64,000 bases of DNA. Source: Streptomyces avermitilis MA-4680 = NBRC 14893 (GTDB taxonomy: Bacteria; Actinomycetota; Actinomycetes; Streptomycetales; Streptomycetaceae). Shown here piece after piece: positions 10,335 through 28,677 of this stretch. The notes under the pieces are model-generated. The model made no database searches. It had not been told where the DNA came from and saw only the letters and a list, made by a program, of their open reading frames with translations. Within the stretch, counting starts at the first letter, position 1, and each line of letters begins with the position of its first letter. Made by a program: the position numbers and the translations under genes. The stretch spans positions 744,001 to 808,000 of the forward strand of contig NC_003155.5 of assembly GCF_000009765.2 (NCBI RefSeq). Direction: 5' to 3'.

Positions 10335-10363
10335 TAGTCGGGGGGTGCAGCCCGTGAGTTCCC
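10335..10363 (-). promoter_or_regulatory. ECF-type promoter P1 (importer operon)
   Basis: Minus strand: -35 GGGAAC (10358-10363), 17-nt spacer, -10 CGACTA (10335-10340), followed by CTGC. It lies between the NRPS stop and the SBP start, 50 bp before the SBP ATG. It matches four other sites in this window in sequence and spacing. Confidence 0.75.
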
Positions 10364-10375
10364 GGAGATGCCCAA

Positions 10376-13300
10376 CTACTTTGCCGGGGTTGCGAGATGG
10401 CTCTGCTTCCCGGCCGGGGCGGGCAGCGTTCCGGTGGTGACGCAGTGGTCGAGGTAACGGAAGACGAGGTCACGGTCGACGGGCGGGGAGGTGATGCCGC
10501 TGCCGTGCAGGCCGTTCACGACGTTGTCGGCACGGACGCGTCCCAGGCGTAGCTCCGGCCCGGTCGCGTCGTCGGGGTTCGCCTCCCAGGCGTCGAAGAA
10601 GGCGAGCATGGTCGCCGCCACGCCGGAGTCACCGGAGGATCGCGGCAGTTCGGCACGCCACTGGGCCAGCGGCATGCGCCGCAGCGGATAGCCGTAGTCC
10701 TCCAGCCAGTCGTAGACGTCGGCCAGCCGCACCGGGCGGGCGGTGGCGTGGTTGAAAACCGTCGCTCCCGGCGGGCGCTGTCCGAGGCAGAGGTGGACGA
10801 GGGCCTGGGCGACGTGGTCGACGGGTGTCCATGTCTCCTCGTCGAACAGGTCGGGGACGATGCGCGCGGGGATCCCCGCGCGCAGCACGCTCCAGAGGAA
10901 GTCCCGTTCGTTCACGTAGCCAGTGGTGCGTGGGCCGACGATCCGGCCGAGCCGGTGCACGGTGACCGGCAGGCCTCTTTCGGCGGCCTGTTCCAGCAGG
11001 CGCTCGGCCGCCCACTTCGACTGCTGGTAGCCGTGGCGCAGTCCGGGGTGGGCCGCAAGGAACGCCTCCGGTACCTCCGGGGCGAGGTCGAGGGGCGGGG
11101 CGACGGAGAGGGTCGACACCAAGTGCAGGGGAATGGAGCGCACAGCCGCCATGCGCAGCAGGTCCCGGGTGGACTCGGTGTTGGCGGCGCGGAGGGTGGC
11201 GTATTCGCGCATGATGCTGACGGTCGCCGCGTTGTGGATGATCGCCCCGCAGGTCCGGGCGAGGTCGGCGAAGAGTGCCTCGTCCACGCCGAGGCGGGGG
11301 CGGGCGAGGTCGGCGGGGACCGCTGTGATGCGTTCGCGCGCCGCGTCCGGGAGGTGGATCAGGTGGGTTTCCAGGGCCTGGTGGATGCGGGCGGTGGCCT
11401 CGGCGGGGCTAGCGGCGCGCACGGTGCAGACGGCCTCCGCGCCGGTGCTCGTCAGGAGTTCGGCCAGCAGATGTGCGCCGACGAAGCCGGTGGCTCCGGT
11501 GAGCAGGATTCTGTCCGGCGTGCCGCTCGCCCGGGGACCGTCGCCGGGGCGGATGTCCGGATCGAGGACGGTGTCGGCGAGCAGGGCCGCCGGAAGGCCG
11601 GGAGGGGCCGAGCGAGGCTGCTCCTGCTGTTCCAGGAATCTCGCCAGTTCGGCCGGGGTCGGGTGCTGGAAGAGCCAGGCGACTTTGAGGTCACGGTGCA
11701 GTTCGACGCCGAGGCGGTTGGCGACCTGGATGGCCTGGAGCGAGTGGGCCCCCAGGTCGAACACATCGTCCCGGGCAAAGACGGCGGCCACGCCGAGCAC
11801 CTGTTGCCAGACGGCGGCGATGGTGCGCACCAGTGCACTGTCGGACGTCGCGGCCTGCGCACCGGGCTCCGGCACATGTCCGTCGGGGGTCGTCGCGGCG
11901 AGCGCGTTCCTGTCGATCTTCCCTGAGCTCGTCCGGGGCAGGCGGTCAAGGAACTCGACGGCCGACGGGATCATGGCCGCGGGCAGCGTCTCCCGGAGGT
12001 GGTCCCTGATCAGGGCCACGGCCGGGGCGGGCCCGTCCGGGACGACGTACGCGACCAGGCGCCGCGTCCCGTCGCCCAGCACCAGCCCTACGACAACCGC
12101 GTCACGGACTCGCGGATGGCCAAGGAGGGCGCCCTCGACTTCGGCCGGGTGCACTCGATGTCCGCTGATCTTGAACTCGGTGTCCGACCGGCCCAGGTAG
12201 CGCAGCTGCCCGTCGTCGCCGATCCGTACCAGGTCGCCTGTGCGGTAGGCGCGGGGCGCTCCGGGGATCTGGTCCAGAGGGGCGAAGCGGGAGGTGTCCG
12301 GTGGCCGGTCTCCGCGGTAGCCGATGGCCAGGTTGTCGCCCAGGAGGTGGAGTTCGCCGTCGACGACCGCGGCTCGGGTGCCAGGCAGCGGCAGTCCGAT
12401 CGGGACGTCTCCCGGAGCGAGCGAGGGGTCGTGGAGGTCGGCGACGGTGGCGACCACGGTGGCCTCGGTCGGCCCATAGGTGTTCAGCAGCCGGACCGAC
12501 GTGCCGACGGCCGTGCGCCAGCGTTCGACCCGCTCGGGGAGGGCCGCCTCACCGCCGATGACGACGGTGCGCACCTCGGCCGGCAGAGTGACCGCACCGG
12601 TCGAAACGGCGTACGCCAGTTCGTGCCAGTAGGCCGTAGGCAGGTCGAGGAAGCTGATCCGCAGCCGTGCGCAGGCGTCCAGGAATCCGGGGACCGACTC
12701 GGTCATGTCGTCGGTACGGACGACGAGCGTGGCGCCCGCACACAGTGTGAGGAAGATTTCCTCGAGGCTGGTGTCGAAGTGCAGGGGGGCGAACTGCAGG
12801 ACGCGGTCCCGGTGGTGAAGGCCGTAGCGGTGCGTGGCGCCGGCGACGAAGTGCGCGAGGGCGTGGTGGCCGACTTCGACGCCCTTGGGGCGCCCCGTGG
12901 AGCCCGAGGTGTGGAGGACGTAGGCGAGGTCCTCGGGCGTCGGTGCCGTCGACTGGGCCGCTTCGGAATCTGGTCCCGGCTCGTCGTGTCGCAGAACGGC
13001 CCGGTCCCCGAAGCGGTCGGCGAAGGCGCTGGTGGTGAGGACGAGGTCGGGCCGGGCGTCGTCCAGCAGTTCCGCCCTGCGGGCCCGGGGCGCCGTCGGG
13101 TCGAGCGGGCTGTAGGCGGCACCGGACAGCAGGACTCCGAGGATGGCGGTGATCGCGTCGATACCGCGCGGCAGGGCGACGGCCACCAGGTCGCCGTGGC
13201 CGACCTGACGGGCAGCCAGTCGGCGCGCGAGTGCACGCGCCGATCCGAAGAGTCGGGCATACGTGATGCTGGTGCCGCCGTGCTCGACGGCGACGAATCC

Positions 13301-14719
13301 GCCATGCCGGGCGGCATGGTCGGCGATCAGGCCGAGAACCGGGCGCACGGGGCCGGGCAGCGGCCCACCGTCCAGGACCGGGACGGGCTCGCGCGCACAC
13401 AGGTCGCCGAGCGCCCGGTCAGGGGCCGCGACGGCCTCCTCGAGCAGGGCTAGCAGCCCCTCCTGGAGTGCGGCGACGTCCGCCTCGTCGTAGAGGTCGG
13501 GGTTGGCGTCCACGGCGATGCGCAGTCCCGCGCCCTCGGAACGGTCGTAGACGTTGACGGACAGGTCGTCGACGGGGCCCGCGGAGATATTGTGGACCGT
13601 GCTCCGGTGTCCGGCGAAGCGCAGGTCGTACTCGAAGGGCATGATGTTGACGCCAGGACCGGAGAGCCGGCGCTGTCCGCCGACGAGCTTGAGGTCGCGC
13701 CGCAGCTGTTCGTAGCGGTAGCGCTGGTGCGGCAGCCCGGCGCGCAGCTCGCGGGAGATGCGGGCCGCGAGGTCGCGCAGGCTGTCCGAGGCGGTGACGG
13801 CGACGCGCAGGGGCAGGATGTTGCGCACCATGCAGGGAACGCGCAGGGACACAGAGCCCAGACGTCCCATCGCCGGCAGGCTGAGGACGATCTCCGGTGC
13901 ACGGGTCGCGTGGTGCAGCTGGGCCACGGTCACGGCCAACAGCACCTCGGACCAGGTGAGTTGGAGGTCCCGGGCAACGGCACGCAGGGCCTGCGTCTGC
14001 GCCGCGTCGAGGTCCGCCACTCGCCGGTGGAACGTGCGCGCGGGCAGGGCCGTACGGCCGGCGGGAGTGGCCACGGGCGGCCGGTCCGCGAACCGGTCCG
14101 CCCAGTAGGCGCGGGCCTTGGCGAAGCGGGGCGACTCCCGGTAGGCGCGTTCCTCGTCCCGCACCGAGGCCAGCGTGCCGAAGCCGCCGGCCGCCGCCCG
14201 CTCGCCCGCCGCCAGGGCCGTGTAGACCTGGGCGACTCGGCGGGCGACCAGCGACAGGCCGAAGCCGTCGAGGGCGATGTGGTGCACGCGGTGGTACCAG
14301 AGGTACTGCTCCGGCGCGGTGCGCAGCAGGGCGTGGCCGAAGACGGGGCCGCGCGCGAGGTCGACGGGGCGGGCCATGTCCTCGCCCATCCAGGCCAGGG
14401 CCGCCGCGTGCGGATTGGGCTCGGTGGTGAGGTCGGCCGTGTGCAGGCGCCAGTCGCCGACCGGGGCGGTTGCCTGCCAGGGGCGGCCCTGGTCGTCGAC
14501 GACGAAGACGACGTTCAGGGCCTCCGTCTCGGCGACCACGTGGTGCAGGGCCGCATCGAAGACGGCCGTGTCCACCGGTCCTTCGATGAGCACGTACTCG
14601 GCCGTGTTGTACGCGGGACTGTCCGGGTCGAGCTGCTGGCCGGTCCAGATGCCTTCCTGAGCGGCCAGCAACGGATGACGCCGCGCTGTGTCATCCATGT
14701 CGCTGTCATGCGTCGGCAT
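10376..14719 (-). CDS. scoA: INLP nonribosomal peptide synthetase, C-A-PCP-reductase (ScoA-like)
   Basis: 1447 aa, single module. A condensation domain occupies ~15-440 (HHIALDG), an adenylation domain ~460-960 (LHTSGSTGRPKGVEV, NTYGPTEA, YRTGDLVRIGDDG), a carrier domain ~985-1060 (LGAHSLQ, Ser arm), and a terminal thioester reductase ~1080-1440 (LLTGATGFVGAHLL, YQQSK). Reading the substrate pocket by eye gives D-T-E-D-V-G-T-V. Acidic residues at the second-helix and LPT positions suit a basic amino acid such as lysine. In the INLP pathway the module acylates both amino groups with isonitrile acyl-ACP and releases an alcohol reductively. AGGGGAG precedes ATG 14719, which overlaps the ACP gene by 14 bp. 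Confidence 0.93.
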   Translation of the reverse strand: MPTHDSDMDDTARRHPLLAAQEGIWTGQQLDPDSPAYNTAEYVLIEGPVDTAVFDAALHHVVAETEALNVVFVVDDQGRPWQATAPVGDWRLHTADLTTEPNPHAAALAWMGEDMARPVDLARGPVFGHALLRTAPEQYLWYHRVHHIALDGFGLSLVARRVAQVYTALAAGERAAAGGFGTLASVRDEERAYRESPRFAKARAYWADRFADRPPVATPAGRTALPARTFHRRVADLDAAQTQALRAVARDLQLTWSEVLLAVTVAQLHHATRAPEIVLSLPAMGRLGSVSLRVPCMVRNILPLRVAVTASDSLRDLAARISRELRAGLPHQRYRYEQLRRDLKLVGGQRRLSGPGVNIMPFEYDLRFAGHRSTVHNISAGPVDDLSVNVYDRSEGAGLRIAVDANPDLYDEADVAALQEGLLALLEEAVAAPDRALGDLCAREPVPVLDGGPLPGPVRPVLGLIADHAARHGGFVAVEHGGTSITYARLFGSARALARRLAARQVGHGDLVAVALPRGIDAITAILGVLLSGAAYSPLDPTAPRARRAELLDDARPDLVLTTSAFADRFGDRAVLRHDEPGPDSEAAQSTAPTPEDLAYVLHTSGSTGRPKGVEVGHHALAHFVAGATHRYGLHHRDRVLQFAPLHFDTSLEEIFLTLCAGATLVVRTDDMTESVPGFLDACARLRISFLDLPTAYWHELAYAVSTGAVTLPAEVRTVVIGGEAALPERVERWRTAVGTSVRLLNTYGPTEATVVATVADLHDPSLAPGDVPIGLPLPGTRAAVVDGELHLLGDNLAIGYRGDRPPDTSRFAPLDQIPGAPRAYRTGDLVRIGDDGQLRYLGRSDTEFKISGHRVHPAEVEGALLGHPRVRDAVVVGLVLGDGTRRLVAYVVPDGPAPAVALIRDHLRETLPAAMIPSAVEFLDRLPRTSSGKIDRNALAATTPDGHVPEPGAQAATSDSALVRTIAAVWQQVLGVAAVFARDDVFDLGAHSLQAIQVANRLGVELHRDLKVAWLFQHPTPAELARFLEQQEQPRSAPPGLPAALLADTVLDPDIRPGDGPRASGTPDRILLTGATGFVGAHLLAELLTSTGAEAVCTVRAASPAEATARIHQALETHLIHLPDAARERITAVPADLARPRLGVDEALFADLARTCGAIIHNAATVSIMREYATLRAANTESTRDLLRMAAVRSIPLHLVSTLSVAPPLDLAPEVPEAFLAAHPGLRHGYQQSKWAAERLLEQAAERGLPVTVHRLGRIVGPRTTGYVNERDFLWSVLRAGIPARIVPDLFDEETWTPVDHVAQALVHLCLGQRPPGATVFNHATARPVRLADVYDWLEDYGYPLRRMPLAQWRAELPRSSGDSGVAATMLAFFDAWEANPDDATGPELRLGRVRADNVVNGLHGSGITSPPVDRDLVFRYLDHCVTTGTLPAPAGKQSHLATPAK

Positions 14720-14995: not shown

Positions 14996-16558
14996 TCAGT
15001 TGACCTTGCGTGCGGAGTCGTCCCAGAAGCGGTCGCGCAGCTCGCGGCGCAGGATCTTTCCGCTGGGGTTGCGCGGGACGCTCTCGATGAACTCGTAGCG
15101 GGCGGGCAGCTTGAAGCTCGCGAGCCGCGGGACGAGGAAGGTGTGCAGGTCCCGGGGGCTGGGCCGCTGTCCGGGCGCGGGGACGACGAAGGCGTGCACG
15201 TACTCGCCCCAGCGTTCGTCGGGGGCGCCGACGACGACGGCCTCCGCTACGCCGGGGTGGTGCTCCAGTACGTTCTCGATCTCGGCGGGGTAGACGTTCT
15301 CGCCGGCGACGAGGATGGCGTCCTTGATGCGGTCGCGGATGAAGATGTAGCCGTCCTCGTCGATATAGCCGGCGTCCCCGGTGTGGATCCAGCCGTCGAC
15401 GAGGGTCTCGGCGGTCTTGCCGGGCAGTCCCCAGTACTCGACCATGTGGGCCGGCGTGGCCAGACAGACCTCCCCGACCGCGCCCGGCGGCAGTTCGCGC
15501 CCCTCGCCGTCGATCACCTTGCTGCCCACACCCGGATACGGCCGCCCGGCCGCCTGCATGAGGGAACCGCCGGGGACATGGGCGGCCGGGGGCAGGCACA
15601 CAGCGGTGTTGCCGGTCTCGGTGAGGCCGTAGATCTGGGCGAACTCGCAGTCGAGAACGGCGAGGCTCTCCTCAAGCAGTGCCTCGGAGATCGGGGAGCC
15701 GCCGTAGACGGTCTTGCGCAGGGTGGTGAAGTCCTTGGCGCTGACGCGGGGTTCGGTCAGCATCATGCGGAGCATCGCCGGGACGACGCAGGCGGTGGTG
15801 ATGCCGAGGTCGCGGATGAGGTCGACGGCCTGGCGGGCGGCGAAGGCCCGCATCGCGACGATCGTGGTTCCGGCGTTGAAGTTCTGTGTGGCCCACCACA
15901 GACCGCCGATGTGGAATCCGGGGATACCGATCAGCGCGATGTCGCCTGCGCGCCAGTCGATCCAGTCCAGCCCCTCGCTCGCCAGCGCGTCACGGATCGC
16001 GAAGAAGCTGCGGTGGGCGAGGACGACGCCCTTGGGCAGTCCGGTGGTGCCGCTGGTGTAGAGCTGGGCGACGGGGGTGTCGGGGGTGACGTGCGGTGTC
16101 GGGTCGGTGTCGGGGTGGGATGCCTTCCAGGCGACGAAGGGCTCTCCGAGCCCGACGACCGTTTCGGGGGGTGCGGTCGGCATCTTCTCGACGATCGGCC
16201 CGAACTCCTCCTCCAGGAAAAGCAGTCGGGTCCCGGAGTCCCGCAGGATATGGCTGACCTCGGGCGCGGTCAGCCGCCAGTTGACGGGTACGAGCACGGT
16301 GCCGCTCTTGGCACAGCCGAAGAGGATCTCGTAGTAGTGCTCGGACTCCTTGCCGAGGTACGCGACCCGGTCGCCCGGCGTGAGTCCGGCGGCCTGGACG
16401 GCGTGGGCGATGCGGTTGCTCTCTCGGTGCAGTTGCTCGTACGTGACCGTGCGGCCCTCGAAGAGAACCGCGGGGGTCGTGGGCTGGTTCCGTGCGTGGA
16501 AGCTCGTGGTCTGGACGAGCGTCTGAAGCTCCGGATGGTGGAGCCTGTCCATGGCCAT
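14996..16558 (-). CDS. scoC: Fatty acyl-ACP ligase (ScoC/FadD10-like)
   Basis: 520 aa. ANL-superfamily adenylating enzyme: LYTSGTTGLPKGVVLAHRSF (A3), YGLTETGN (A5), HTGDAGYIDEDGYIFIRDRI (A7/A8), and C-terminal PRNPSGKILRRELR with the catalytic Lys. By homology with ScoC and FadD10 it activates an enoyl fatty acid onto the ACP, then reloads the isonitrile acid. ATG 16558 starts MAMDRLHHPEL; the longer frame to 16762 would overlap the FcoT-like gene and looks non-coding. Confidence 0.92.
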   Translation of the reverse strand: MAMDRLHHPELQTLVQTTSFHARNQPTTPAVLFEGRTVTYEQLHRESNRIAHAVQAAGLTPGDRVAYLGKESEHYYEILFGCAKSGTVLVPVNWRLTAPEVSHILRDSGTRLLFLEEEFGPIVEKMPTAPPETVVGLGEPFVAWKASHPDTDPTPHVTPDTPVAQLYTSGTTGLPKGVVLAHRSFFAIRDALASEGLDWIDWRAGDIALIGIPGFHIGGLWWATQNFNAGTTIVAMRAFAARQAVDLIRDLGITTACVVPAMLRMMLTEPRVSAKDFTTLRKTVYGGSPISEALLEESLAVLDCEFAQIYGLTETGNTAVCLPPAAHVPGGSLMQAAGRPYPGVGSKVIDGEGRELPPGAVGEVCLATPAHMVEYWGLPGKTAETLVDGWIHTGDAGYIDEDGYIFIRDRIKDAILVAGENVYPAEIENVLEHHPGVAEAVVVGAPDERWGEYVHAFVVPAPGQRPSPRDLHTFLVPRLASFKLPARYEFIESVPRNPSGKILRRELRDRFWDDSARKVN

Positions 16559-16604
16559 GGAGGTCTCGGTCCTCTCTTGCCGCTGGGTGGGTGGCAGGAG
16601 CGCG

Positions 16605-17123
16605 TCAGGGGATGTTGACGAACGCCAGGACGGCCTCGCCGTCGCACCGGCCCGAGTCGGCGTCCCAGTAGCGGTAGGCGGTCTCGGCGTGCAGGAACGG
16701 GATGCCGCCTGCGGGGGCGCGCCGGGTGACGGACTGAAATTCCATCTCCCCGGAGAATGCACGTGGGTTGACGGGCCGCCGGAAGTTGGAGGCGAAGCGG
16801 GCGATCAGGATGTCCGGGAGCTGATGCTTCCAGAAGTCGTCCAGCGTCCAGGATTCGAACCCCGCCAGGAGCCCTTCTTTCACGGACTTGGCGACGAGGT
16901 AGTACATCATCTGGTTGTAGCAGATGTTCACCTCGACGGAATTCAGATGGCCGGTGTCGTCGATATAGCACGACTCCGGAATCGCGAACTCGCAGCGGGC
17001 GACGGCCCGTCCGGTGTCGCTCTCGGTCACGACGGCCGAGCGCAGATACTTGCAGTGGTCCTTGTAGGGCACCAGCACGCGCGCCAACAGGTCCTCGTCC
17101 GTGGGGTGCTGGGCCGTCGTCAT
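16605..17123 (-). CDS. scoD: FcoT-like hot-dog protein (ScoD-like)
   Basis: 172 aa. Same family as M. tuberculosis FcoT/Rv0098: [20 protein letters not shown], then [18 protein letters not shown], and [14 protein letters not shown]. In the INLP pathway ScoD adds glycine across the enoyl-ACP double bond and frees the N-carboxymethyl beta-amino acid. The start overlaps the isonitrile synthase stop by 4 bp (ATGA). Confidence 0.9.
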
Positions 17124-18010
17124 GCCACCTTGATCCCGTCGTGTAGCTTTCGCTCGTCGTGCACGGTGACCCGGTAGGAGACGGTCGGCTCGGGGGTGGT
17201 CGTGTGCCGGGCGCGGTGGATGAGGCTGCGGTTGTCCCAGACCAGCAGGTCGCCCTGCTCGAAGCTCTGCAGGTGGATGTTGTCGTGCTCGAAGGTCTCG
17301 TCGAGCTGGCCGGTGGCCTGGAACAGTCGCTTGAGCAGCTCGTCGTCGAGCGGCTCGCCGTCCTGGTCCTCGACGCCGATGGTGAAGCCCTCGCTGATGT
17401 AGAGGACCGTCTCCCCGGTCATGGGGTGCGTGAACGTGGTCGGCTGGACGACGGCCGGGGTCTTCCGCTCGACCTCCTCGATGATCTCCGAGATGGGGCG
17501 GTAGACGTCGTGGGGCCGGATCTTGAAATATTTGCGCACCGAGTGCCGGCAGTACGTTCCGCCGATCTCCTTCTTGAGATCTTCGGGCAGCCTGTCGTAT
17601 GCCCGGCCCATGTCGATGAAATACGTGCCGCGGTTCTGCCGCGGAATGACCTGGGGGTAGATCAGGGTGATCCCGAAGGGGTCAGGCATGAACTGGTAGT
17701 CCGCGTGCCAGAACTTTCCGGTCTTCGGTACGCCTATCTGCTTTCCGTTCTCCGGCACGTTGGAGGATACGAATATCTCCGTGACCTCCGGGTGGTGGTA
17801 CATCGGCTCGTAGTAGGTCTCGGGGCGCCCCAGCCGCTTGCCGAGTTCGAGGAACTCCTGGGGAGAGAGGTCCTGGCCCTTCAGGACGGCGATCTTCTTC
17901 GTGTAGACGGTGCTTTTGAGTGCGGCGATGTCGGCGTCCGAGGCGGTGGCGTGGTCGAAGCCCTCGACCGTCGCGCCGATCGCGGTGCCGGGCCGTTCAT
18001 TGATCCGCAT
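17120..18010 (-). CDS. scoE: Isonitrile-forming Fe(II)/2OG oxidase-decarboxylase (ScoE-like)
   Basis: 296 aa, TauD/TfdA fold. Iron ligands are the HAD triad (His102, Asp104) in [11 protein letters not shown] and a distal His (~265) in RSLIHRARH; the 2-oxoglutarate Arg is probably in SYRVTV. Family members ScoE and Rv0097 convert the glycyl N-carboxymethyl adduct to an isonitrile with loss of CO2. AAAGGCGG lies upstream of the ATG. With the FcoT-like gene, ligase, ACP and NRPS directly downstream, this is the diagnostic INLP gene. Confidence 0.93.
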
Positions 18011-18045: not shown

Positions 18046-18285
18046 TCAGACGGTTGCCTGGCGGGCGTCGACGAGTCCGGCGAGATCGCCGAGGGTGAGG
18101 TCGGGCTGGAGTTCGTCATCGCCGACGGCGACTCCGAGGTCGCGTTCGATGCGGATGCTGATCTCGACCGTCGTCAGCGAGTCGACGTCCAGTTCGCCGA
18201 GGGTCGCCTCGGGGCGGATCCGGTCCGCCGGGGCGTCGTGCAACCTCGCGAGGATGTCGACCAGTCGGTCGTAGGTGGTGCTCAT
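18046..18285 (-). CDS. Second acyl carrier protein
   Basis: 79 aa, canonical [18 protein letters not shown], phosphopantetheine Ser in [16 protein letters not shown], then [18 protein letters not shown]. Its ATG overlaps the FabH-like stop (ATGA), so the two are coupled. It is not part of the five-gene INLP core and probably works with the KASIII to make the fatty acid precursor fed to the ScoC-like ligase (inference). Confidence 0.9.
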
Positions 18286-21881: not shown

Positions 21882-22538
21882 TCACTGGCCAGCGGTCGAT
21901 GTCCGCAGCACCGTTCCCCGGCGCTCGACCTCCACGATCGCCTCCGCGTGAGCGGCGGCAGCGCCTTCCAACTCCCCCTCCAGCAGCCTCAGGGCGCCGT
22001 CGATGCCCGACGAGACGACCCCGCCGGCCGTCACCAGGTCACCGTCGTCGACGACTCGCTGGTCCACGACCCGGGCTCCCCGTTCGGCGAGGTGACTCCT
22101 GGCCAGGTGGCGCGGGGCGGACGGCAGCCGCTCCTTGTCGAACTCCGCCCAGACGCCGGGGCTGTCCCGTCGGCCGAAGCCTCCACCGGGTACGACGATC
22201 AGAGCGGCGTCGCGCGGGGACCAGGCCGCTGCCGCCACCCTCGTGCCGAAGCTGTAGGTCATCTCGGCCGCTTCTCCGCCGGTCACCGGTTTCACCGTCA
22301 CCGGATGGGCCCGGGCGGCCACGGAGAAGACTTCGAACGGGCCGAAGACCTGCAACTTCTCCACGCCGTCCAGCTCCTCCACGCCGTCGAAGGTGACAGT
22401 GCGGATGCGTAGCACCTCGCCGTCTTCGCCGCGGGCACGCGCCGGGACGGCCGCGTGGGCGGTGCCGGCGGCGAGCGGGGCCGCCGAGACGGCGCCGATC
22501 GCCGTCGTGGCGGACTGCAACAGACGTCTGCGTTCCAC
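21882..22538 (-). CDS. Exported DJ-1/PfpI protein lacking its catalytic Cys segment
   Basis: 218 aa from GTG 22538 (GAAGGTGG upstream). A Tat-like signal (ERRRLLQSATTAIGAVSAAP, AHA) precedes a DJ-1/PfpI domain: VEKLQVFGPFEVFS, LIVVPGGGFGRRD, then C-terminal VTAGGVVSSGIDGALRLL. Between PSAPRHL and ARSHLAERGARVVD about 35-40 residues with the nucleophile elbow (SVCTG) are absent, although the frame is open. Relatives include isonitrile hydratase, which turns isonitriles into formamides with that Cys. The protein is therefore probably inactive, or a binding protein. It is first in the INLP run behind two ECF promoters. Confidence 0.7.
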   Translation of the reverse strand: MERRRLLQSATTAIGAVSAAPLAAGTAHAAVPARARGEDGEVLRIRTVTFDGVEELDGVEKLQVFGPFEVFSVAARAHPVTVKPVTGGEAAEMTYSFGTRVAAAAWSPRDAALIVVPGGGFGRRDSPGVWAEFDKERLPSAPRHLARSHLAERGARVVDQRVVDDGDLVTAGGVVSSGIDGALRLLEGELEGAAAAHAEAIVEVERRGTVLRTSTAGQ

Positions 22539-22638
22539 GTGTGCCGAACCACCTTCGCCCGAAGTTCCGCGCTCCGACCTGCCGACCTGCCTGCCTCGCA
22601 CGGTGGTCAGCGGGTGGTGAGCTGCGCTGTCGAACTAG

Positions 22639-22667
22639 TAGTCGGTCGCGCGTGGGCTCGAGTTCCC
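22639..22667 (-). promoter_or_regulatory. ECF-type promoter P2 (INLP operon, proximal)
   Basis: Minus strand: -35 GGGAAC (22662-22667), 17 nt, -10 CGACTA (22639-22644) followed by CTAG. It lies about 100 bp before the DJ-1 GTG. It is part of a ~45-bp imperfect direct repeat shared with P3. Confidence 0.75.
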
Positions 22668-22771
22668 GCGTTCTCCGGGCCAATTTTCCTTGCCTTGGCG
22701 GCACTTGAGGACATGCGGCCGTCGGGTCATACTCCGACGTGCCTGCTCCCCCGTCGGCCGCACGAACAAGT

Positions 22772-22800
22772 AGTCGCGCCGACGGGCTGCCGAGTTCCCC
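22772..22800 (-). promoter_or_regulatory. ECF-type promoter P3 (INLP operon, distal)
   Basis: Minus strand: -35 GGGAAC (22795-22800), 17 nt, -10 CGACTA (22772-22777) followed by CTTG. It is 133 bp upstream of P2 and oriented the same way. The two form a tandem, apparently duplicated promoter (repeat units ~22632-22680 and ~22763-22810). Confidence 0.72.
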
Positions 22801-23297: not shown

Positions 23298-23819
23298 ATG
23301 GAGCCGAGAAGCCTGATGCGTGTGATGCGCCCGACGCGCAACACATGGTTCGTCAACGCCTTACGGACCGTCGCGCCGCCGTTGGGCGCCTCCTGCGGTG
23401 CGCTGGCCCTCATGGTCGCGTACACCGCGACCGGCGCGGCAGGCGATCCGCCGCCCAGGATCACGGTCGTCGACGCACACATCGTCGCGGTGTCCGCGGG
23501 TTCCGGCTCGACCGCCGCGTATTTCGAGATCCGCAACACCGGCCCGTCGAAGGACACGCTGCTGTACGCGGACTCACCGGACCTGGGCGTCAGCCTCCTG
23601 CGACGTACAGTGCGCCGCACCGGGACGGGGCGTACGGAGCCCGTGTGGGCCGTCGACGTTCCGGCGGGCGGCACGGTGCGCATGGCGCCGGGAGGTCTCG
23701 GGGTCGTGATCCTGGATCCCCCCGTACTGAAAGCCGGTCAGAAGGTGCCCTACCTTCTGTGGTTCCGTCAGAGCGGGAAGGTCGCCGTCCGGGCGACCGT
23801 GACCGCGGGCGTGAGATGA
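23298..23819 (+). CDS. PCu(A)C-family copper chaperone-like membrane-anchored protein
   Basis: 173 aa; ATG 23316 is an alternative start favoured by the promoter position. One N-terminal membrane segment (GASCGALALMVAYTATGAAG) leads into a PCu(A)C/DUF461 beta-sandwich (ITVVDAHIVAV, STAAYFEIRNTG, VPAGGTVRMAPGGLGVVIL). The classical H-Mx10-M...H-x-M copper ligands are largely missing (LGVVIL where HLML is usual), so copper binding is uncertain. PCu(A)C proteins move Cu(I) outside the membrane, e.g. to cytochrome oxidase. It faces the ECF sigma gene across a strong terminator. Confidence 0.75.
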   Translation: MEPRSLMRVMRPTRNTWFVNALRTVAPPLGASCGALALMVAYTATGAAGDPPPRITVVDAHIVAVSAGSGSTAAYFEIRNTGPSKDTLLYADSPDLGVSLLRRTVRRTGTGRTEPVWAVDVPAGGTVRMAPGGLGVVILDPPVLKAGQKVPYLLWFRQSGKVAVRATVTAGVR

Positions 23820-23898: not shown

Positions 23899-24552
23899 TC
23901 ACGCGGCGACGGCGGCGGGGGCCCGCGACTCCTCGGCCTCGACAAGAAGTGCGACGAGGGTCGCCCGGGCTCGTGCCACCCGCGAGCGGATCGTGCCGAC
24001 GGGACAACCGCTGGCCTCGGCAGCCTCCTCGTAGGGCAGTCCCGTCAGCTGGGTGAGGACGAACGCCTCACGGCGCTCAGCAGGCAGCGCGTCCAGCAGA
24101 TCGAGCAAGGCCACACCGTCCTCGAAGCCGGGCAGACCGCTCGGCTGGGCCCGCTCGGCCCATACCGTCCAGTCGTCCGTGTCACGCAGCCGCGGCCGGG
24201 CCGCGGTGTAGCGCACGTTGTCGATCACCGTGCGGCGCGCGATGGACAGCAGCCACGTACGCGCCGACGAGCGCCCCTCGAACCGGTGCAGGCTGCCGAG
24301 TGCCCGCAGGAACGTGTCCTGCGCCAGGTCGTCGGCGAGCTGACGGTCGGAGGAGAGGTGCGTGATGTAGCGGACGACGTCGGGGTGCAGGGCACGCACG
24401 AAGCGGTCGACGGCGTCGGGGTCGCCGGCGCGGGCGGCGAGGGCCCAGGCGGTGGCCGCATCGTCGGGCCATGCCATGGCGCCGGGCTGATCCGCCGCCT
24501 TGCGCCCCGCGTCGCGCTTCTCGCGCGACACGGGGAGGACAGGAGTGATCAC
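23899..24552 (-). CDS. ECF sigma factor (SigC-like by context)
   Basis: 217 aa from GTG 24552 (GAAGGA upstream). Sigma-70 region 2 is seen in DLAQDTFLRALGSLHRFEGR, then RTWLLSIARRTVIDNVR. Region 4 is LPAERREAFVLTQLTGLPYE, then CPVGTIRSRVARARATL. No anti-sigma gene is adjacent. A copper ATPase, copper chaperones and an INLP cluster surround it, matching the set controlled by SigC in M. tuberculosis. It is the obvious candidate to read the five GGGAAC-17-CGACTA promoters here, which is inference. Confidence 0.87.
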   Translation of the reverse strand: MITPVLPVSREKRDAGRKAADQPGAMAWPDDAATAWALAARAGDPDAVDRFVRALHPDVVRYITHLSSDRQLADDLAQDTFLRALGSLHRFEGRSSARTWLLSIARRTVIDNVRYTAARPRLRDTDDWTVWAERAQPSGLPGFEDGVALLDLLDALPAERREAFVLTQLTGLPYEEAAEASGCPVGTIRSRVARARATLVALLVEAEESRAPAAVAA

Positions 24553-24751
24553 CTGATGTCCTTCTCGGGTTGTCCGGGATCCGGCACGGCGGCACGCGCG
24601 ACCGCGCGCTGGTGCGCCGGGCGTGAGCACCGCTGCGGAAACGTCCCGGGACGGGAGGTGGGATGGGGCCGTACGACGTGAACGACCCGTGCCCGAAGCC
24701 CTGGCACCGACTACGCGGCGCCCAGCGGGTGGCCTCGGGAAACCAGCTGTC
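24553..24751. other. Intergenic upstream of sigma gene
   Basis: About 200 bp between the Met-rich membrane protein and the sigma gene. No GGGAAC-17-CGACTA site is found here. The sigma gene may be transcribed from upstream or from an unrecognised promoter. Confidence 0.4.
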
Positions 24752-25429
24752 TCAGGCGACAGCCATCCCGGCCGGAGGCCCTCGAGAAATGATCGTGTGC
24801 GCGAGCGACAGCCGCGGCACCCGCTCCGAACGTTCGCGCGTCGGCACCAGACGCGGCCGACACGGCGGGGCGGGCAGAGCGAGCGACAGCCGCAGCGGAG
24901 CGGCCAGCCATCCCGCGACGGCCCGCAACACGCGGAAAGCGGCCCTCTCGCCGTAGGCCAGCCACAGCCCACTCAGCACAGCGGCCAGGGCATGGGCGGC
25001 GAGCATGCCGAACGACGACCCGCCGCCCATGTCGTGTACCAGATGGCCAAGTTGCCCTGGCTGCTCCGAACAGCCCATGGGCGCGGACCTCATGTCCATG
25101 GCGTCCATGGACGTGGCGCTCATGGACATACCACGCATGCCGTGCGCCACACCGCCCGCGCCGGTGTCCGATGCCGCCGACTGGGCCAGCGAGAAGGCCG
25201 AGTGGAGCGCTCCCTGCGCGACGACCGCGGCGGGCACCACCAGCGCGAGTCCGCGCTCACGGCCCGCCAGACACCAGCCGACGCCGGTCGTGGCGGCGAA
25301 CCCGGCGGTCATCGTCCACCAGGGCACGGTGGAGCCCGACATCAGTACGTGACCGAGGGCGGCGAGCAGCACGCAGACTGCCGCGAACACCGCGGCCCGT
25401 ATCGCGCGCGCACACCACCCAGCAGTCAT
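24752..25429 (-). CDS. Membrane protein with Met-rich external loop
   Basis: 225 aa with ~5 membrane segments (AAVFAAVCVLLAALGHVLMS; LALVVPAAVVAQGALHSAFS; SFGMLAAHALAAVLSGLWLA). Between segments 3 and 4 is a loop rich in Met and His (MRGMSMSATSMDAMDMRSAP, HLVHDMGGG), a pattern typical of Cu(I)-handling proteins. No named family is recognised with confidence. It lies between a PCu(A)C gene and the ECF sigma gene on the same strand. A role in copper sensing or transfer is inferred. Confidence 0.7.
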   Translation of the reverse strand: MTAGWCARAIRAAVFAAVCVLLAALGHVLMSGSTVPWWTMTAGFAATTGVGWCLAGRERGLALVVPAAVVAQGALHSAFSLAQSAASDTGAGGVAHGMRGMSMSATSMDAMDMRSAPMGCSEQPGQLGHLVHDMGGGSSFGMLAAHALAAVLSGLWLAYGERAAFRVLRAVAGWLAAPLRLSLALPAPPCRPRLVPTRERSERVPRLSLAHTIISRGPPAGMAVA

Positions 25430-25579: not shown

Positions 25580-26101
25580 TCACGTGCCGTCCTGGCCCGG
25601 ACGGACCACCACAGCCAGGGTCTTCACAGCACCGCTGCGTGCGAAACGCAACGTGAACGAGACGAGATCGCCGGCCTGCCAGCCCGCATTCGCCGGCACC
25701 GTCACATCAAGGCCGTGCGGGGACATGGCGAGGCTGCCACCGGCCGGGACGGCGACCGACGCCACCGTCTGCGCGGAGGCCGACCGAGCGCCGGTCATGC
25801 GATGGCGACTGAAGGTGCCGGCGCCGTCGACCGCGCGGGACGTCACCTTCAGCAGCCGGTCCGCCGAGCCGCCGCTGTTGGTGATCCGGAAGAAGGCCGC
25901 CGTGTCCTGGGCGTTGCCGTAGGGCAGGTACACCCGGCCCCCGGTGACCGCGATACGGGCCGGGCTGCCCGCGTTGCCATACGCGGTCCACGTGCTCAGA
26001 CCGCCGAGGGCCAGGCCGCACACGGCGACGGGCGAGAGCGTGGCGATCAGGGTGTCGGTGAGCCTGCGCCGGGTGGGCCGCCAGACCTGTTGTCCGGTCA
26101 T
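25580..26101 (-). CDS. PCu(A)C copper chaperone
   Basis: 173 aa. One N-terminal membrane anchor (IATLSPVAVCGLALGGLSTW), then a PCu(A)C domain (IAVTGGRVYLPYGNAQDTAA, FFRITNSGGSADRLL, SRHRMTGA, VPAGGSLAMSPHGLDVTVP). Candidate Cu(I) ligands His/Met are kept in SRHRM and AMSPHGL, unlike the PCu(A)C-like protein at 23298. Its ATG overlaps the ATPase stop (ATGA), so ATPase and chaperone are coupled. Confidence 0.82.
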   Translation of the reverse strand: MTGQQVWRPTRRRLTDTLIATLSPVAVCGLALGGLSTWTAYGNAGSPARIAVTGGRVYLPYGNAQDTAAFFRITNSGGSADRLLKVTSRAVDGAGTFSRHRMTGARSASAQTVASVAVPAGGSLAMSPHGLDVTVPANAGWQAGDLVSFTLRFARSGAVKTLAVVVRPGQDGT

Positions 26102-28353
26102 CGGGTACGCCTCCGGGCGGGCGAGGGCTGCCAGCCGCGCAACCGCAGGCTGTTGCCGACCACCAGCACCGAGCTGGCGGACATGGCCGCCGCCGCGAGC
26201 ATGGGGTTGAGCAGGCCGACCAGGGCGAGCGGCACGGTCACGACGTTGTAGCCGAAGGCCCAGACGAGGTTGGCACGGATGGTGCCCAGGGTGCGCCGGG
26301 CCAGCCGGACGGCGTCCGCGAGGGCCTCGATGTCGCCGCGTACGAGGGTCACGTCGGCGGCCCCGATGGCCACGTCGGTGCCGGTGCCCATGGCGATCCC
26401 GAGGTCGGCGCCGGCCAGCGCGGCGGCGTCGTTCACGCCGTCGCCGATCACCGCGACTCGGTAGCCCTGCTCCTGCAACTCCCGTACGAGTTCGGCCTTG
26501 CCCTCGGGCGTGCAGCGAGCGTGCACCTCGTCGATGCCCAGGGTCGCGGCAACGGCCCGGGCGGGCGCCTCGCGGTCACCGGTGGCGAGCACGGGCCGCA
26601 CGCCGAGCCGCCGCAGCCGGTCGACGGCCCGGTAGCTTCCGGGGCGTACGACATCCCCGACCTCGATCAGCGCCTCGGCCACCCCGTCCACACGGACCAG
26701 TACGGGCGTGTGCGCGGCGGCCTCCGCCACCGGCAGGGCATCCGCGAGGGCTGCGGGCAACTCGTCGTCCGGGGCGAGGACTTCCACCAGCCGCCCCTCG
26801 ACCCGGCCGCGCACTCCCCGCCCCGGCATTGCACTGAACTCGCCCACGTCCGGCAGCCGCTGCTCGCGCAGCTCCCGCCGGGCGTAGGCGGAGACGGCCC
26901 GGCCGAGGGGGTGTTCCGAGCCTTGTTCGACACCGCCCGCCAGCCGCAGTACCGCGTCGCGGCCGAGCCCGTCCGGTACGACGGTGACCCGGGCGACGCT
27001 CATGTGCCCGGTGGTGAGCGTGCCCGTCTTGTCGAGCACGACGGCGTCGATGTGCTGAAGCCCCTCCAGCGCCTGCGGGCCGGTGACGAGGACACCGAGC
27101 TGGGCACCCCGGCCGGTCGCGGCCATCAGCGCGGTCGGCGTCGCAAGGCCCAGCGCGCACGGGCAGGCCACCACCAGGACCGCCACACACGCGGTGATCG
27201 CCGCCTGTGGATCGGCCCCGGCGCCCAGCCAGAATCCGAGCGCGGTGACGGCCAGTGCCAGCACGACCGGCACGAAGACACCGGCCACCGAGTCGGCCAG
27301 CCGCTGGGCACGCGCCTTGCCGGCCTGCGCCTCGGTGACCAGACGGGTGATCCGGGCGAGCTGCGTGTCGGCACCGACGGCCGTGGCCCGTACGAGCAGC
27401 AGCCCGCCGGCGTTGACGGCCCCGCCGACCACGGCCGAGCCCGGCCCGACCTCGACCGGCTCGCTCTCCCCGGTGACCAGGGCCAGATCCACGGCCGAAC
27501 TGCCCTCCACCACCTGTCCGTCGGTGGCGACCCGTTCGCCAGGCCGCACGACGAAGACCTGACCGCCCTCCAACTCCGCAATGGGAACGAGCCGTTCGGA
27601 ATCACCGTCCCGTACCGACACCTCCTTGGCGGCGAGTTCGGCCAGCGATCGTAGCGCCGCCCCGGTGCCCCGCCGGGCCCGCGCCTCCAGGAACCGCCCC
27701 GCCAGTACGAACAGCGGTACGCCGACGGCCGCTTCGAGGTAGATGTGCGCGACGCCGTCCGATGCGGAGGGAACGAGGCTGAACGGCATCCGCATCCCGG
27801 GATCACCGGCACCCCCGAGGAAGAGCGCGTACGCCGACCACGCGAAGGACGCCACCACGCCCAGCGACACCAGCGTGTCCATGGTCGCCGCCGAGTGCCG
27901 CAGCCCCCGTACCGCCCGCGCGTGGAAGGGCCAGGCACCCCATACCGCGACCGGCGCGGCCAGCATGAAACACAGCCACTGCCAGTTGCGGAACTGCAGC
28001 ACGGGCACCATCGACAGCACGAGCACGGGCACCGCGAGCAACGCGGTGCCCAGCAGCCGGTCGCGCTCCTGCCGCGCCTCCTCGGTCTCCCGCCCGCCCT
28101 CACGCGGCTGCTTCTTGGGCGGCTCGGGGAGCGCGGCCGTATAGCCGGCCTTCTCGACCGTCGCCACGAGTTGCCCGACGCTGACCTCCGTCGGATGGCT
28201 CACGCGAGCCCGCCCGGTGGCCAGGTTCACGGTCGCCGTCACTCCGTCGAGCTTGCCGAGCTTCTTCTCGACACGGGTCACGCACGCGGCGCAGGTCATG
28301 CCGCCGACGCTCAGATCGGTCGTCACCAGGGCGGTCATCGGTTCGGCGCCCAT
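26098..28353 (-). CDS. Copper-translocating P1B-type ATPase
   Basis: 751 aa. An N-terminal HMA domain (GMTCAACVTRVEKKLG, Cys21/Cys24) is followed by transmembrane helices, the TGES actuator motif (LVTGESEPVEVG), the CPC metal site (VACPCALGLATPTALMA), the phosphorylation motif DKTGTLTTG, the SEHPLGRAV His and the hinge GDGVNDAAALAGADLGIAMG. The CPC and C-terminal YN/MSSS features mark a Cu(I)/Ag(I) CopA/CtpV/CtpB-type pump. In the CtpB/SigC context it may supply copper to exported proteins rather than detoxify. It starts inside the stop of the Met-rich gene (TGATG). Confidence 0.93.
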   Translation of the reverse strand: MGAEPMTALVTTDLSVGGMTCAACVTRVEKKLGKLDGVTATVNLATGRARVSHPTEVSVGQLVATVEKAGYTAALPEPPKKQPREGGRETEEARQERDRLLGTALLAVPVLVLSMVPVLQFRNWQWLCFMLAAPVAVWGAWPFHARAVRGLRHSAATMDTLVSLGVVASFAWSAYALFLGGAGDPGMRMPFSLVPSASDGVAHIYLEAAVGVPLFVLAGRFLEARARRGTGAALRSLAELAAKEVSVRDGDSERLVPIAELEGGQVFVVRPGERVATDGQVVEGSSAVDLALVTGESEPVEVGPGSAVVGGAVNAGGLLLVRATAVGADTQLARITRLVTEAQAGKARAQRLADSVAGVFVPVVLALAVTALGFWLGAGADPQAAITACVAVLVVACPCALGLATPTALMAATGRGAQLGVLVTGPQALEGLQHIDAVVLDKTGTLTTGHMSVARVTVVPDGLGRDAVLRLAGGVEQGSEHPLGRAVSAYARRELREQRLPDVGEFSAMPGRGVRGRVEGRLVEVLAPDDELPAALADALPVAEAAAHTPVLVRVDGVAEALIEVGDVVRPGSYRAVDRLRRLGVRPVLATGDREAPARAVAATLGIDEVHARCTPEGKAELVRELQEQGYRVAVIGDGVNDAAALAGADLGIAMGTGTDVAIGAADVTLVRGDIEALADAVRLARRTLGTIRANLVWAFGYNVVTVPLALVGLLNPMLAAAAMSASSVLVVGNSLRLRGWQPSPARRRTR

Positions 28354-28589
28354 CAGCCGTGTCCCCCCTGCATGTTGCCCATGTCGTCCATACCTCCGCC
28401 GCCGCCGTCGCGGTTCGTGCCGCCGCCGTGCATACCGGGTGCGACAGGACCGGCGCCGGCACCCACCGCGTAGGACACCGTGAAGATCAGGGCCAGCAGC
28501 AGAAGGAAGCCGCAGAGCGCGGGCGGGGGCGCCGCCCTCCGCAGGGCCGTACCCGCGCCGGTCAAGGAGGATTGCCGGGACTCTTCCAT
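28353..28589 (-). CDS. Small Met/His/Gly-rich membrane protein
   Basis: 78 aa from ATG 28589 with GGAG 9 nt upstream. One membrane segment (ALCGFLLLLALIFTVSYAVG) is followed by an external tail ending MHGGG...MDDMGNMQGGHG, rich in Met and His and so a likely Cu(I) site. A GTG at 28664 is rejected as start because it lies between the -35 and -10 of promoter P4. It is first in a three-gene operon with the copper ATPase and PCu(A)C. Function unassigned. Confidence 0.72.
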   Translation of the reverse strand: MEESRQSSLTGAGTALRRAAPPPALCGFLLLLALIFTVSYAVGAGAGPVAPGMHGGGTNRDGGGGGMDDMGNMQGGHG

Positions 28590-28648
28590 CAACCGCGTCT
28601 CCAGGTCACGTCGGACGGCGTCGGTCGGATCGCGCCGTACCAGTTCAG

Positions 28649-28677
28649 TAGTCGGACCAGCCACGGGCCGGGTTCCG
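28649..28677 (-). promoter_or_regulatory. ECF-type promoter P4 (copper ATPase operon)
   Basis: Minus strand: -35 CGGAAC (28672-28677), 17 nt, -10 CGACTA (28649-28654) followed by CTGA. It is 60 bp before the Met-rich gene start. Confidence 0.7.

What the first reader, a model, noticed from the sequence alone, without database searches (positions are those of the whole stretch)
10335..28677. A five-site ECF sigma regulon links isonitrile lipopeptide genes with a copper island
Seen in sequence: GGGAAC-N17-CGACTA occurs on the minus strand at 10335-10363, 22639-22667, 22772-22800 and (with CGGAAC) 28649-28677, and GGGAAC-N17-CGACCT on the plus strand at 23262-23290. Spacing is exactly 17 nt in all five. 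The four minus-strand -10s share CGACTACT. All lie just upstream of start codons: the importer operon, the DJ-1/hydroxylase end of the INLP block, the copper ATPase operon and a PCu(A)C gene. An ECF sigma gene (23899-24552) sits among them. Inference: this sigma factor drives all five.
Basis: partly seen in the sequence, partly recalled or inferred. Interest (0 to 1): 0.95.

Follow-up and report, generated by a model that had tools for sequence, protein, structure and literature searches.

The report
Arrest-peptide sigma regulon for copper scavenging
In a Streptomyces genome, five copies of one promoter-like sequence lie in front of genes predicted to make, import and handle a copper-grabbing isonitrile molecule; a sigma factor encoded among them likely switches them on, probably when copper is scarce, and that sigma factor would itself be controlled by a neighbouring membrane protein that carries a known ribosome-stalling motif near its end.

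Summary
The five sites are real (one lies at 22771, not 22772) and not chance: 0 of 100 shuffles of the window give five. Genome-wide, the strict form GGGAAC-N17-CGACTACT occurs 4 times, control 0: three in the window plus an unreported site before a PepSY_TM gene. The motif matches the Corynebacterium sigma-C consensus (-35 GGGAACT, -10 CGACTA; PMC5483222 discussion). The ECF gene's closest solved relative is M. tuberculosis SigC, known to raise isonitrile (nrp) genes and ctpB and to matter in copper-poor medium (PMC7924339).

Two things go further. (1) A Met/His-rich membrane protein lies just upstream of the ECF gene in 79 of 80 related loci; RGPP, a proven arrest motif, sits 9-11 residues from its end in 81 of 81, followed by conserved RNA hairpins. 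(2) In 13 related islands a PvcA-type isocyanide synthase stands in place of the lipopeptide genes, behind the same promoters. Copper sensing, arrest here and the transcription itself are inferred, not shown.

The parts
10335..10363 (-). sigma-C-type promoter before the importer operon (GGGAAC-N17-CGACTA)
   Evidence: exact sites before homologous importers in 7 other genomes; absent before the L007 importer
22639..22667 (-). sigma-C-type promoter, proximal, before DJ-1/AspOH and the isonitrile operon
   Evidence: site within 700 nt before AspOH in 6 of 7 named INLP islands, the seventh (L005) has two sites before its DJ-1 gene
22771..22799 (-). sigma-C-type promoter, distal, tandem with the previous one
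   Evidence: tandem also in L004 and L005
23262..23290 (+). sigma-C-type promoter (variant -10 CGACCT) before PCu(A)C gene 1
   Evidence: present in 5 of 5 named islands with that gene
28649..28677 (-). sigma-C-type promoter (CGGAAC) before the smTM-copA-PCuAC2 genes
   Evidence: in 4 of 8 INLP-type islands with smTM (L007 counted), 0 of 8 ICS islands
23899..24552 (-). SigC-like ECF sigma factor gene
   Evidence: Pfam Sigma70_r2 and r4_2; NCBIfam PRK12535 170.6 bits (cut-off 290) and SigC 164.8 bits (cut-off 219), both under cut-off; best PDB match M. tuberculosis SigC 2o7g
24752..25429 (-). MetTM: Met/His-rich membrane protein ending ...SRGPPAGMAVA; predicted copper-sensing arrest peptide for the ECF gene
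   Evidence: upstream of ECF in 79 of 80 loci; RGPP 9-11 residues from the C-terminus in 81 of 81; H27, H76, M142, H146 invariant in the 56 sequences aligned
24773..24784 (-). RGPP codons (predicted ribosome stall site)
   Evidence: RGPP supports arrest (PMC12992588)
24746..24763 (-). RNA hairpin 1, MetTM stop codon in its loop (GCUGUC/GACAGC)
   Evidence: 98.1% of 484 cells paired; U-A to C-G exchange at one pair in 8 sequences
24692..24739 (-). RNA hairpin 2 (CCCGAGGC/GCTTCGGG)
   Evidence: matching 3' arm in 47 of 81 loci against 4.6% with shuffled downstream sequence
23298..23819 (+). PCu(A)C family protein 1 (copper ligands not seen)
   Evidence: PF04314 1.3e-20; alignment to SCO3965
25580..26101 (-). 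PCu(A)C family protein 2
   Evidence: PF04314 5.9e-17
26098..28353 (-). copper-type P1B ATPase
   Evidence: TIGR01511 497.9 bits, cut-off 397
28353..28589 (-). smTM: small membrane protein with Met/His-rich tail (start codon uncertain)
   Evidence: sequence; no Pfam family
21882..22601 (-). DJ-1/PfpI-like protein, isocyanide-hydratase-like in residues 169-218 only
21101..21853 (-). aspartyl/asparaginyl hydroxylase family protein (AspOH)
   Evidence: PF05118 3.2e-44
19424..20830 (-). MFS exporter
   Evidence: MFS_1 3.2e-48
18282..19388 (-). beta-ketoacyl-ACP synthase III-like protein
   Evidence: NF006829 394.9 bits, cut-off 249
18046..18285 (-). acyl carrier protein (ScoB-like)
   Evidence: read by eye in the ORF; not searched separately
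17120..18010 (-). ScoE isonitrile-forming oxygenase/decarboxylase
   Evidence: NF049937 535.8 bits, cut-off 400
16605..17123 (-). ScoD enoyl-ACP glycyltransferase
   Evidence: NF049938 312.2 bits, cut-off 250
14996..16561 (-). acyl ligase (ScoC-like)
   Evidence: AMP-binding 7.8e-78 on the longer ORF to 16762
10376..14719 (-). NRPS (ScoA-like), domains C-A-T-reductase
9242..10285 (-). substrate-binding protein of an iron-siderophore-type importer
   Evidence: Peripla_BP_2 3.9e-23
8205..9359 (-). FecCD permease (start codon uncertain)
   Evidence: PF01032 2.2e-93
7402..8244 (-). importer ATPase
   Evidence: ABC_tran 1.9e-29

Best explanation
This is a Streptomyces relative of the SigC (sigma-C) regulon: a SigC-like ECF sigma factor likely transcribes, from five promoter-like sites that match the published sigma-C consensus, the predicted genes for an isonitrile lipopeptide, its importer, a copper ATPase and PCu(A)C-family proteins, and would do so when copper is scarce. 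The isonitrile product would be exported by the MFS protein, bind copper outside the cell and return through the FecCD-type importer; the ATPase and PCu(A)C-like proteins would then help to place copper in extracytoplasmic enzymes. The sigma gene itself is predicted to be controlled in cis by MetTM, the Met/His-rich membrane protein just upstream: MetTM carries RGPP ten residues from its end, so its ribosome should stall a few codons before the stop, and the stalled ribosome would melt the conserved hairpin around the MetTM stop codon and remodel the roughly 200-nt leader, changing sigma output. Copper bound by the nascent or inserted MetTM would set how long the stall lasts. Shown here: sites, spacing, gene families, conservation, RGPP invariance, hairpin pairing. 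Inferred: transcription by this sigma, copper as signal, arrest and its direction, the ligand's role.
For: Sites and statistics. In 23 island loci of relatives GGAAC-N-CGACTA occurs 32 times at N17 and 0 times at N11-16 or N18-23. Of 91 exact hits in 149 other Streptomyces genomes, 81 precede a coherent gene set: PepSY_TM 37, importer-like genes 26, a methyltransferase operon 12, isonitrile operon 4, smTM-copA 1, MetTM-ECF 1; 10 unassigned. The base after GGGAAC was left free yet is T in 73 of these 81, giving GGGAACT as in C. glutamicum. Motif and ECF co-occur: 62 genomes both, 44 ECF only, 6 motif only, 38 neither, Fisher p 2.7e-7. SigC kinship. The eleven ScoE copies at 74% identity or more: nine have a SigC-type ECF within 10 kb; the eight copies at 65% or less: none (compared by eye). 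Precedent: in M. tuberculosis induced SigC raises ctpB and the nrp operon, and a sigC deletion grows late in copper-deficient medium (PMC7924339); CtpB there fits copper import (PMC9147137). MetTM; two S. lividans RAPP/RGPP proteins with four predicted TM segments, upstream of ECF genes, do arrest translation (PMC12992588).
Against: No transcription, copper or arrest data exist for this genome. A 72% identical paralog, also with MetTM, could be the reader of the sites. The ECF is under NCBIfam's SigC cut-off (164.8 against 219), and its top NCBIfam hit is another unnamed sigma model, PRK12535 (170.6, cut-off 290). PMC5483222 prints two forms of the sigma-C consensus: GGGAACT/CGACTA in its discussion, GGAAAC/CGACT in its introduction. 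44 of 106 ECF-bearing genomes have no exact site, and the core MetTM-ECF pairs have few sites nearby. CopA-type ATPases often export excess copper, and the site before smTM-copA is missing in ICS islands (0 of 8); the L007 and L060 importers lack a site. Both PCu(A)C proteins lack most or all of the usual copper ligands. Hairpin 1 covariation rests on one pair; two of the tool's five measures do not beat the shuffles (428 of 500). Hairpin 2 is found in 47 of 81 only. The MetTM model is poor (pLDDT 64.9, pTM 0.32), so a metal site could not be judged. I could not check that SLIV_33595/33605 are MetTM homologs.
Confidence: 0.75

Rival explanations
1. The second SigC-type ECF of the genome (C1:1076862), not the one in the window, or both together, reads the five sites.
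For: 72% identical, has its own MetTM with RGPP; in G033 and G109 sites flank isonitrile genes with no SigC-type gene nearby.
Against: The 20 kb around the paralog hold no strict or degenerate site, only one loose look-alike ending CGACTG; nine of eleven close ScoE copies have a SigC-type gene within 10 kb; the window's ECF falls in a nine-row set (SH-aLRT 100) with six INLP-island ECFs, L007 and L009, without the paralog.
Confidence: 0.25
2. MetTM is a conventional membrane anti-sigma factor that holds the ECF protein until copper changes, and the RGPP tail is its sigma-binding end.
For: Adjacent membrane protein in 79 of 80 loci with a conserved C-terminal tail, a common layout of ECF/anti-sigma pairs (general knowledge).
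Against: MetTM comes first, with a leader of about 200 nt in the window; the RGPP position is fixed, and in 8 sequences a coding change after RGPP is matched by a change in the non-coding 3' arm of hairpin 1. RAPP/RGPP proteins upstream of ECF genes in S. lividans arrest translation. No Pfam family, so no known anti-sigma domain, was found.
Confidence: 0.25
3. The regulon answers copper excess or another metal such as zinc rather than copper starvation.
For: CopA-type ATPases and Met/His-rich proteins are often detoxification genes (general knowledge); an M. [quoted passage not shown]
Against: Same sigma family and isonitrile genes are tied to copper shortage in M. tuberculosis, and copper deprivation activates the sigma-C regulon in C. 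glutamicum (cited in PMC7337898); a metallophore with an importer suits scarcity.
Confidence: 0.15
4. The repeated sequence is an operator for a copper-responsive DNA-binding protein, or a promoter for an unrelated ECF, not a sigma-C promoter.
For: Repeated sites in a metal locus are often operators (general knowledge).
Against: Two separated blocks with an exact 17-nt spacer that match the sigma-C -35 and -10 consensus.
Confidence: 0.05

Closest known systems
SigC regulon of Mycobacterium tuberculosis (PMC7924339: abstract and passages; PMC9147137: passages)
   Same: SigC-type ECF raises isonitrile lipopeptide (nrp) genes and a copper P-type ATPase; copper shortage
   Different: There sigC is monocistronic with no anti-SigC factor identified; here the ECF gene follows MetTM with RGPP, and importer, PCu(A)C and PepSY genes carry the sites
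Sigma-C regulon of Corynebacterium glutamicum (Toyoda and Inui 2016, not read; seen through passages of PMC5483222 and PMC7337898)
   Same: -35 GGGAACT and -10 CGACTA (discussion of PMC5483222); active when copper or haem a supply to the oxidase fails
   Different: Its targets named in those passages are respiratory genes; no isonitrile pathway is mentioned there
Isonitrile lipopeptide clusters (ScoA-E; SF2768 of S. thioluteus, cited in PMC7924339)
   Same: ScoE and ScoD over curated cut-offs, NRPS with C-A-T-R domains
   Different: Adds AspOH, a KASIII-like protein, MFS, importer and the copper island behind one promoter type; the published clusters were not compared gene by gene
RAPP/RGPP arrest peptides, incl. 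S. lividans SLIV_33595 and SLIV_33605 and CruR (PMC12992588: abstract and passages)
   Same: Small membrane protein, arrest motif near the C-terminus, upstream of an ECF sigma gene
   Different: Here the downstream ECF is identified as SigC-like with a predicted copper and isonitrile regulon; the passages read give no function for the two ECF-linked peptides
PvcA/DIT1 isocyanide synthases
   Same: Family of the enzyme that stands in place of the lipopeptide genes in 13 related islands (PF05141 tested for two; the rest by tblastn)
   Different: Not in the window; here next to a SigC-type ECF, P450 and, in 12, an asparagine-synthase-like protein

Membership tests
SigC/sigma-C-type ECF regulon | ECF protein belongs to the SigC group | tested here: inconclusive
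   SigC model 164.8 bits, below cut-off 219, and PRK12535 scores higher (170.6, cut-off 290); with the SigC model only this ECF and its paralog stand out in the genome, the next scores 62; top PDB hit SigC 2o7g, 6e-24
SigC/sigma-C-type ECF regulon | -35 GGGAACT and -10 CGACTA promoters | tested here: met
   two of the five window sites (23262, 28649) have C instead of T after GGAAC, and 23262 has CGACCT
SigC/sigma-C-type ECF regulon | targets include isonitrile genes and a copper P-type ATPase | tested here: met
   by position of sites only:
SigC/sigma-C-type ECF regulon | sigma-dependent transcription under copper shortage | not testable with these tools
   needs RNA data
Isonitrile lipopeptide cluster | ScoE and ScoD equivalogs | tested here: met
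   535.8 bits (cut-off 400) and 312.2 bits (cut-off 250)
Isonitrile lipopeptide cluster | NRPS with terminal reductase and an acyl ligase | tested here: met
Isonitrile lipopeptide cluster | stand-alone acyl carrier protein | not tested
   read by eye
RAPP/RGPP arrest peptide | RGPP or RAPP near the C-terminus of a small secreted or membrane protein, downstream gene on the same strand | tested here: met
   membrane nature from sequence and helices of a low-confidence model
RAPP/RGPP arrest peptide | arrest in translation assays, lost when Arg is replaced | not testable with these tools
   shown for seven S. lividans proteins in PMC12992588
PCu(A)C copper chaperone | PF04314 domain | tested here: met
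PCu(A)C copper chaperone | His/Met copper ligands | tested here: not met
   motif H..M..HxM recalled; protein 1 has none of them in the alignment to SCO3965; protein 2 keeps one His but not the Met or the HxM pair
PvcA-type isocyanide synthase (related islands) | PF05141 | tested here: met
   3.3e-77 and 1.5e-77 for L018 and L071; not run on the other 11

The most novel reading that the evidence does not exclude
A copper-gated nascent chain, MetTM, controls by ribosome stalling the making of a SigC-type sigma factor, and this one sensor-sigma unit has been wired in different Streptomyces to unrelated routes to isonitrile chalkophores: the NRPS/ScoE route here, a PvcA-type isocyanide synthase in 13 related islands, and perhaps a third small-molecule route (methyltransferase plus PLP enzyme).
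Probability: 0.45. Interest if true: 0.9.

Novelty: new variant of a known kind. Interest (0 to 1): 0.77.

Why it matters
How copper shortage is sensed through SigC is an open question stated in PMC7924339 (no anti-SigC factor identified, sigC apparently not autoregulated, post-transcriptional control suggested). If MetTM is a copper-sensing arrest peptide, that question becomes testable in a harmless, tractable Streptomyces. It could also give a function to the ECF-linked arrest peptides of S. lividans, and provide a promoter pattern that finds candidate copper-binding natural products: exact sites point to isonitrile lipopeptides, PvcA-type isocyanides and a third, unexplained pathway.

Tried and rejected
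Degenerate pattern alone as genome-wide evidence: rejected, it is at chance. Two-mismatch pattern: rejected, 100 hits against 192 controls. A site at the MetTM promoter in the window (autoregulation): none, also with a loose pattern; among the 91 genus sites one (G084) lies before MetTM. MetTM fold search: not run, the model is too poor. Reading the DJ-1 protein as an active isocyanide hydratase: not supported, only residues 169-218 align and the stretch that should hold the nucleophile (recalled) is not matched. Ninth covariation cell of hairpin 1: rejected, it comes from L075, whose other pairs fail, so I count 8. Claims on absence in print rest (open-licence PMC papers only), judged from titles and starts of abstracts: none listed there describes a Streptomyces sigma factor for isonitrile genes. 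One listed paper, PMC7730460, deals with another ECF (SigG1, ECF56) and metal homeostasis in Streptomyces; I did not read it. I saw parts of seven papers: PMC7924339 and PMC12992588 (outline, abstract, passages), PMC12140626, PMC6338062, PMC7337898, PMC5483222 and PMC9147137 (passages).
Full report
OBSERVATION. None of 100 shuffles of the window gives five. In the 9.12-Mb genome the degenerate pattern is at chance (24 hits, control 27), but 5 of the 24 lie in this 64-kb window. The strict form GGGAAC-N17-CGACTACT has four exact hits, three in the window and one at C1:8766939, with no control hit. Letting the spacer run from 8 to 26 gives six hits, four at 17, and one control hit.

GENES. The minus strand from 22601 to 10376 encodes DJ-1-like, AspOH, MFS, KASIII-like, ACP (by eye), ScoE, ScoD, ScoC-like and an NRPS with reductase; ScoE and ScoD exceed NCBI's cut-offs. 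An importer of the iron-siderophore type follows (10285 to 7402). On the other side lie PCu(A)C-1 (plus strand), and on the minus strand smTM, copper ATPase, PCu(A)C-2, MetTM and the ECF gene.

WHICH SIGMA. NCBIfam's SigC model scores this ECF at 164.6 and a paralog at C1:1076862 at 172 bits, the next ECF of the genome at 62; both are under the curated cut-off of 219, and for the window's ECF another model, PRK12535, scores slightly higher (170.6, cut-off 290). The best solved relative is M. tuberculosis SigC. The discussion of PMC5483222 (passages) gives the C. glutamicum sigma-C consensus as -35 GGGAACT and -10 CGACTA, after Toyoda and Inui 2016, and reports one such promoter (Pcg2556) assigned in vitro and in vivo; its introduction prints the consensus as GGAAAC and CGACT. 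The first form is the motif found here. Passages of PMC7337898 say copper deprivation activates that regulon. PMC7924339 (abstract and passages) reports that induced SigC of M. tuberculosis raises ctpB and the nrp operon and that the deletion strain lags in copper-deficient medium.

UNBIASED TARGETS. In 150 Streptomyces genomes (own included) 68 have an exact site, 95 sites in all, against 30 control hits (the control total is my count of its table). A SigC-type ECF (E up to 1e-45) is in 106 of 150. 38 of the 91 sites outside this genome lie within 20 kb of such an ECF, 53 do not. All 91 were fetched and labelled by the best same-strand tblastn match to my query set that begins within 700 nt, the unlabelled ones again within 2.5 kb: PepSY_TM 37 (three of them 0.9-1.0 kb away), importer-like 26 (seven of these only 32-50% identical to the queries), methyltransferase 12, isonitrile operon 4, smTM-copA 1, MetTM-ECF 1, unassigned 10. 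The base after GGGAAC, left free in the search, is T in 73 of the 81 assigned and in 6 of the 10 unassigned.

ISLAND TYPES. Eight carry isonitrile lipopeptide genes and one (L007) only the importer in the stretch held. Fourteen instead carry another FecCD-type importer; of these, 13 have a PvcA/DIT1-like isocyanide synthase and a P450 (L026 ends before them), 12 an asparagine-synthase-like protein and 12 the copper ATPase (PF05141 confirmed on two). These ICS islands have the site before the importer in 13 of 14 and before the MFS gene in 9 of 12, plus L011 before its asparagine-synthase gene. The lipopeptide islands have it before AspOH in 6 of 7, L005 having its two sites before DJ-1; before PCu(A)C-1 in 5 of 5 with L007; before SBP in L043 but not in L007; before smTM in 3 of 7 plus L007, but 0 of 8 in ICS islands. 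In these 23 loci GGAAC-N-CGACTA occurs 32 times at spacer 17 and never at 11-16 or 18-23; in the other 57 loci it occurs once at 17 and 7 times at other spacers. On the ECF tree the lipopeptide label needs four changes and the ICS label ten, but well-supported branches force only two and one, and the window's own row was counted under another label because its locus was short; so exchange of pathways between sigma lineages is suggested, not proven. A third island type couples the ECF to a methyltransferase, a PLP enzyme and an MFS gene.

METTM AND THE LEADER. MetTM precedes the ECF in 79 of 80 named loci (L037 has no match). It has no Pfam family and 3730 homologs among the 7992 candidates scored; the 120 listed are Streptomyces where an organism is named. 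RGPP stands 9-11 residues from the end in 81 of 81 (79 loci, window, own paralog). PMC12992588 (outline, abstract and passages) shows that RGPP and RAPP support arrest and that seven RAPP/RGPP proteins of S. lividans arrest translation, two of them, with four predicted TM segments, upstream of ECF genes; it cites CruR as a copper-responsive case. Around the MetTM stop codon lies a hairpin GCUGUC/GACAGC: 98.1% of 484 cells pair, and no shuffle of 500 reaches the percentage paired, the cells changed on both sides or the covariation score, while the two measures that count pairs or types are no better than shuffles (428 of 500). Sliding the partner lowers the pairing to 21-43%. The covariation is one pair, U-A to C-G, in nine cells; one (L075) is an alignment accident, leaving eight, where the 5' change alters MetTM's coding (Val to Ala) and the 3' change is non-coding; three other sequences break that pair. 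Six of the eight lie in one clade of the ECF tree, so perhaps three events. A second hairpin that overlaps the first one's lower stem was found in 47 of 81, against 4.6% with shuffled downstream sequence and 26.7% with foreign arms. By the usual ribosome footprint (general knowledge), a ribosome stalled at RGPP would reach the base of hairpin 1. H27, H76, M142, H146, invariant in the 56 MetTM aligned, and a variable Met/His-rich loop are candidate metal ligands, but the model is too poor to test this.

WHAT IS SHOWN AND WHAT IS NOT. Shown: sites, spacing, gene families, conservation, co-occurrence, RGPP, hairpin pairing with limited covariation. Inferred: that this ECF, not its paralog, reads the sites; that copper shortage is the signal; that MetTM arrests and senses copper; the direction of the effect; and that the product is a chalkophore.

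NOVELTY. SigC-controlled isonitrile genes are known in mycobacteria, an isonitrile chalkophore in Streptomyces (S. thioluteus, cited in PMC7924339) and arrest peptides upstream of ECF genes in S. lividans. New here, as far as the listings could show, are the union of the three, two isonitrile pathways behind one promoter type, and PepSY_TM as the commonest target. PepSY's only PDB match at E up to 0.01 is 7abw, which I recall as the siderophore reductase FoxB.

Noticed in passing
own genome C1:8766939 (L001 6939-6969, +): Sixth exact site, before a PepSY_TM gene with a His-rich stretch; homologs are the commonest target of the motif in the genus hits examined (37 of 91 sites).
   Followed up: partly
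L010, L011, L013-L016, L018, L026, L029, L047, L060, L071, L072, L077: SigC-type islands with an importer of another type; PvcA-type isocyanide synthase found in 13 of these 14 (L026 ends before it), P450 in 13, asparagine-synthase-like in 12.
   Followed up: partly
L201 and L207 (G005, G057) and 10 further sites: Third operon type behind the motif: methyltransferase, with a PALP enzyme (L207) and MFS (L201) seen nearby; product unknown.
   Followed up: partly
21882-22601 (-): DJ-1-like protein matches isocyanide hydratase only over residues 169-218; the middle part looks short, so it may be inactive.
   Followed up: partly
7192-8742 (+): A DJ-1 profile match (residues 6-64) on the plus strand near the end of the importer ATPase gene, perhaps a gene remnant.
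   Followed up: no
23298-23819 and 25580-26101: Two PCu(A)C-family proteins without most of the usual copper ligands, both in the copper island.
   Followed up: partly
L004 4072, L005 8902, L007 8948, L010 8892, L015 8928, L018 9076, L020 8902, L022 8906, L043 9011, L057 8988, L072 2854 (all -): In 11 of 80 loci a degenerate sigma-C-like site lies just upstream of MetTM but points away from it.
   Followed up: no
L020 5192, L022 5282, L035 5356, L038 2889, L049 4776, L051 4326, L054 5368, L067 5339, L068 5313, L075 4507, L078 5161 (+): A related conserved sequence GGGAACC-N16-CGACCAGT about 3.7-5.8 kb before core MetTM-ECF pairs; target not identified.
   Followed up: no
5194-5916 (-): Gas vesicle protein GvpL/GvpF gene left of the importer.
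   Followed up: no
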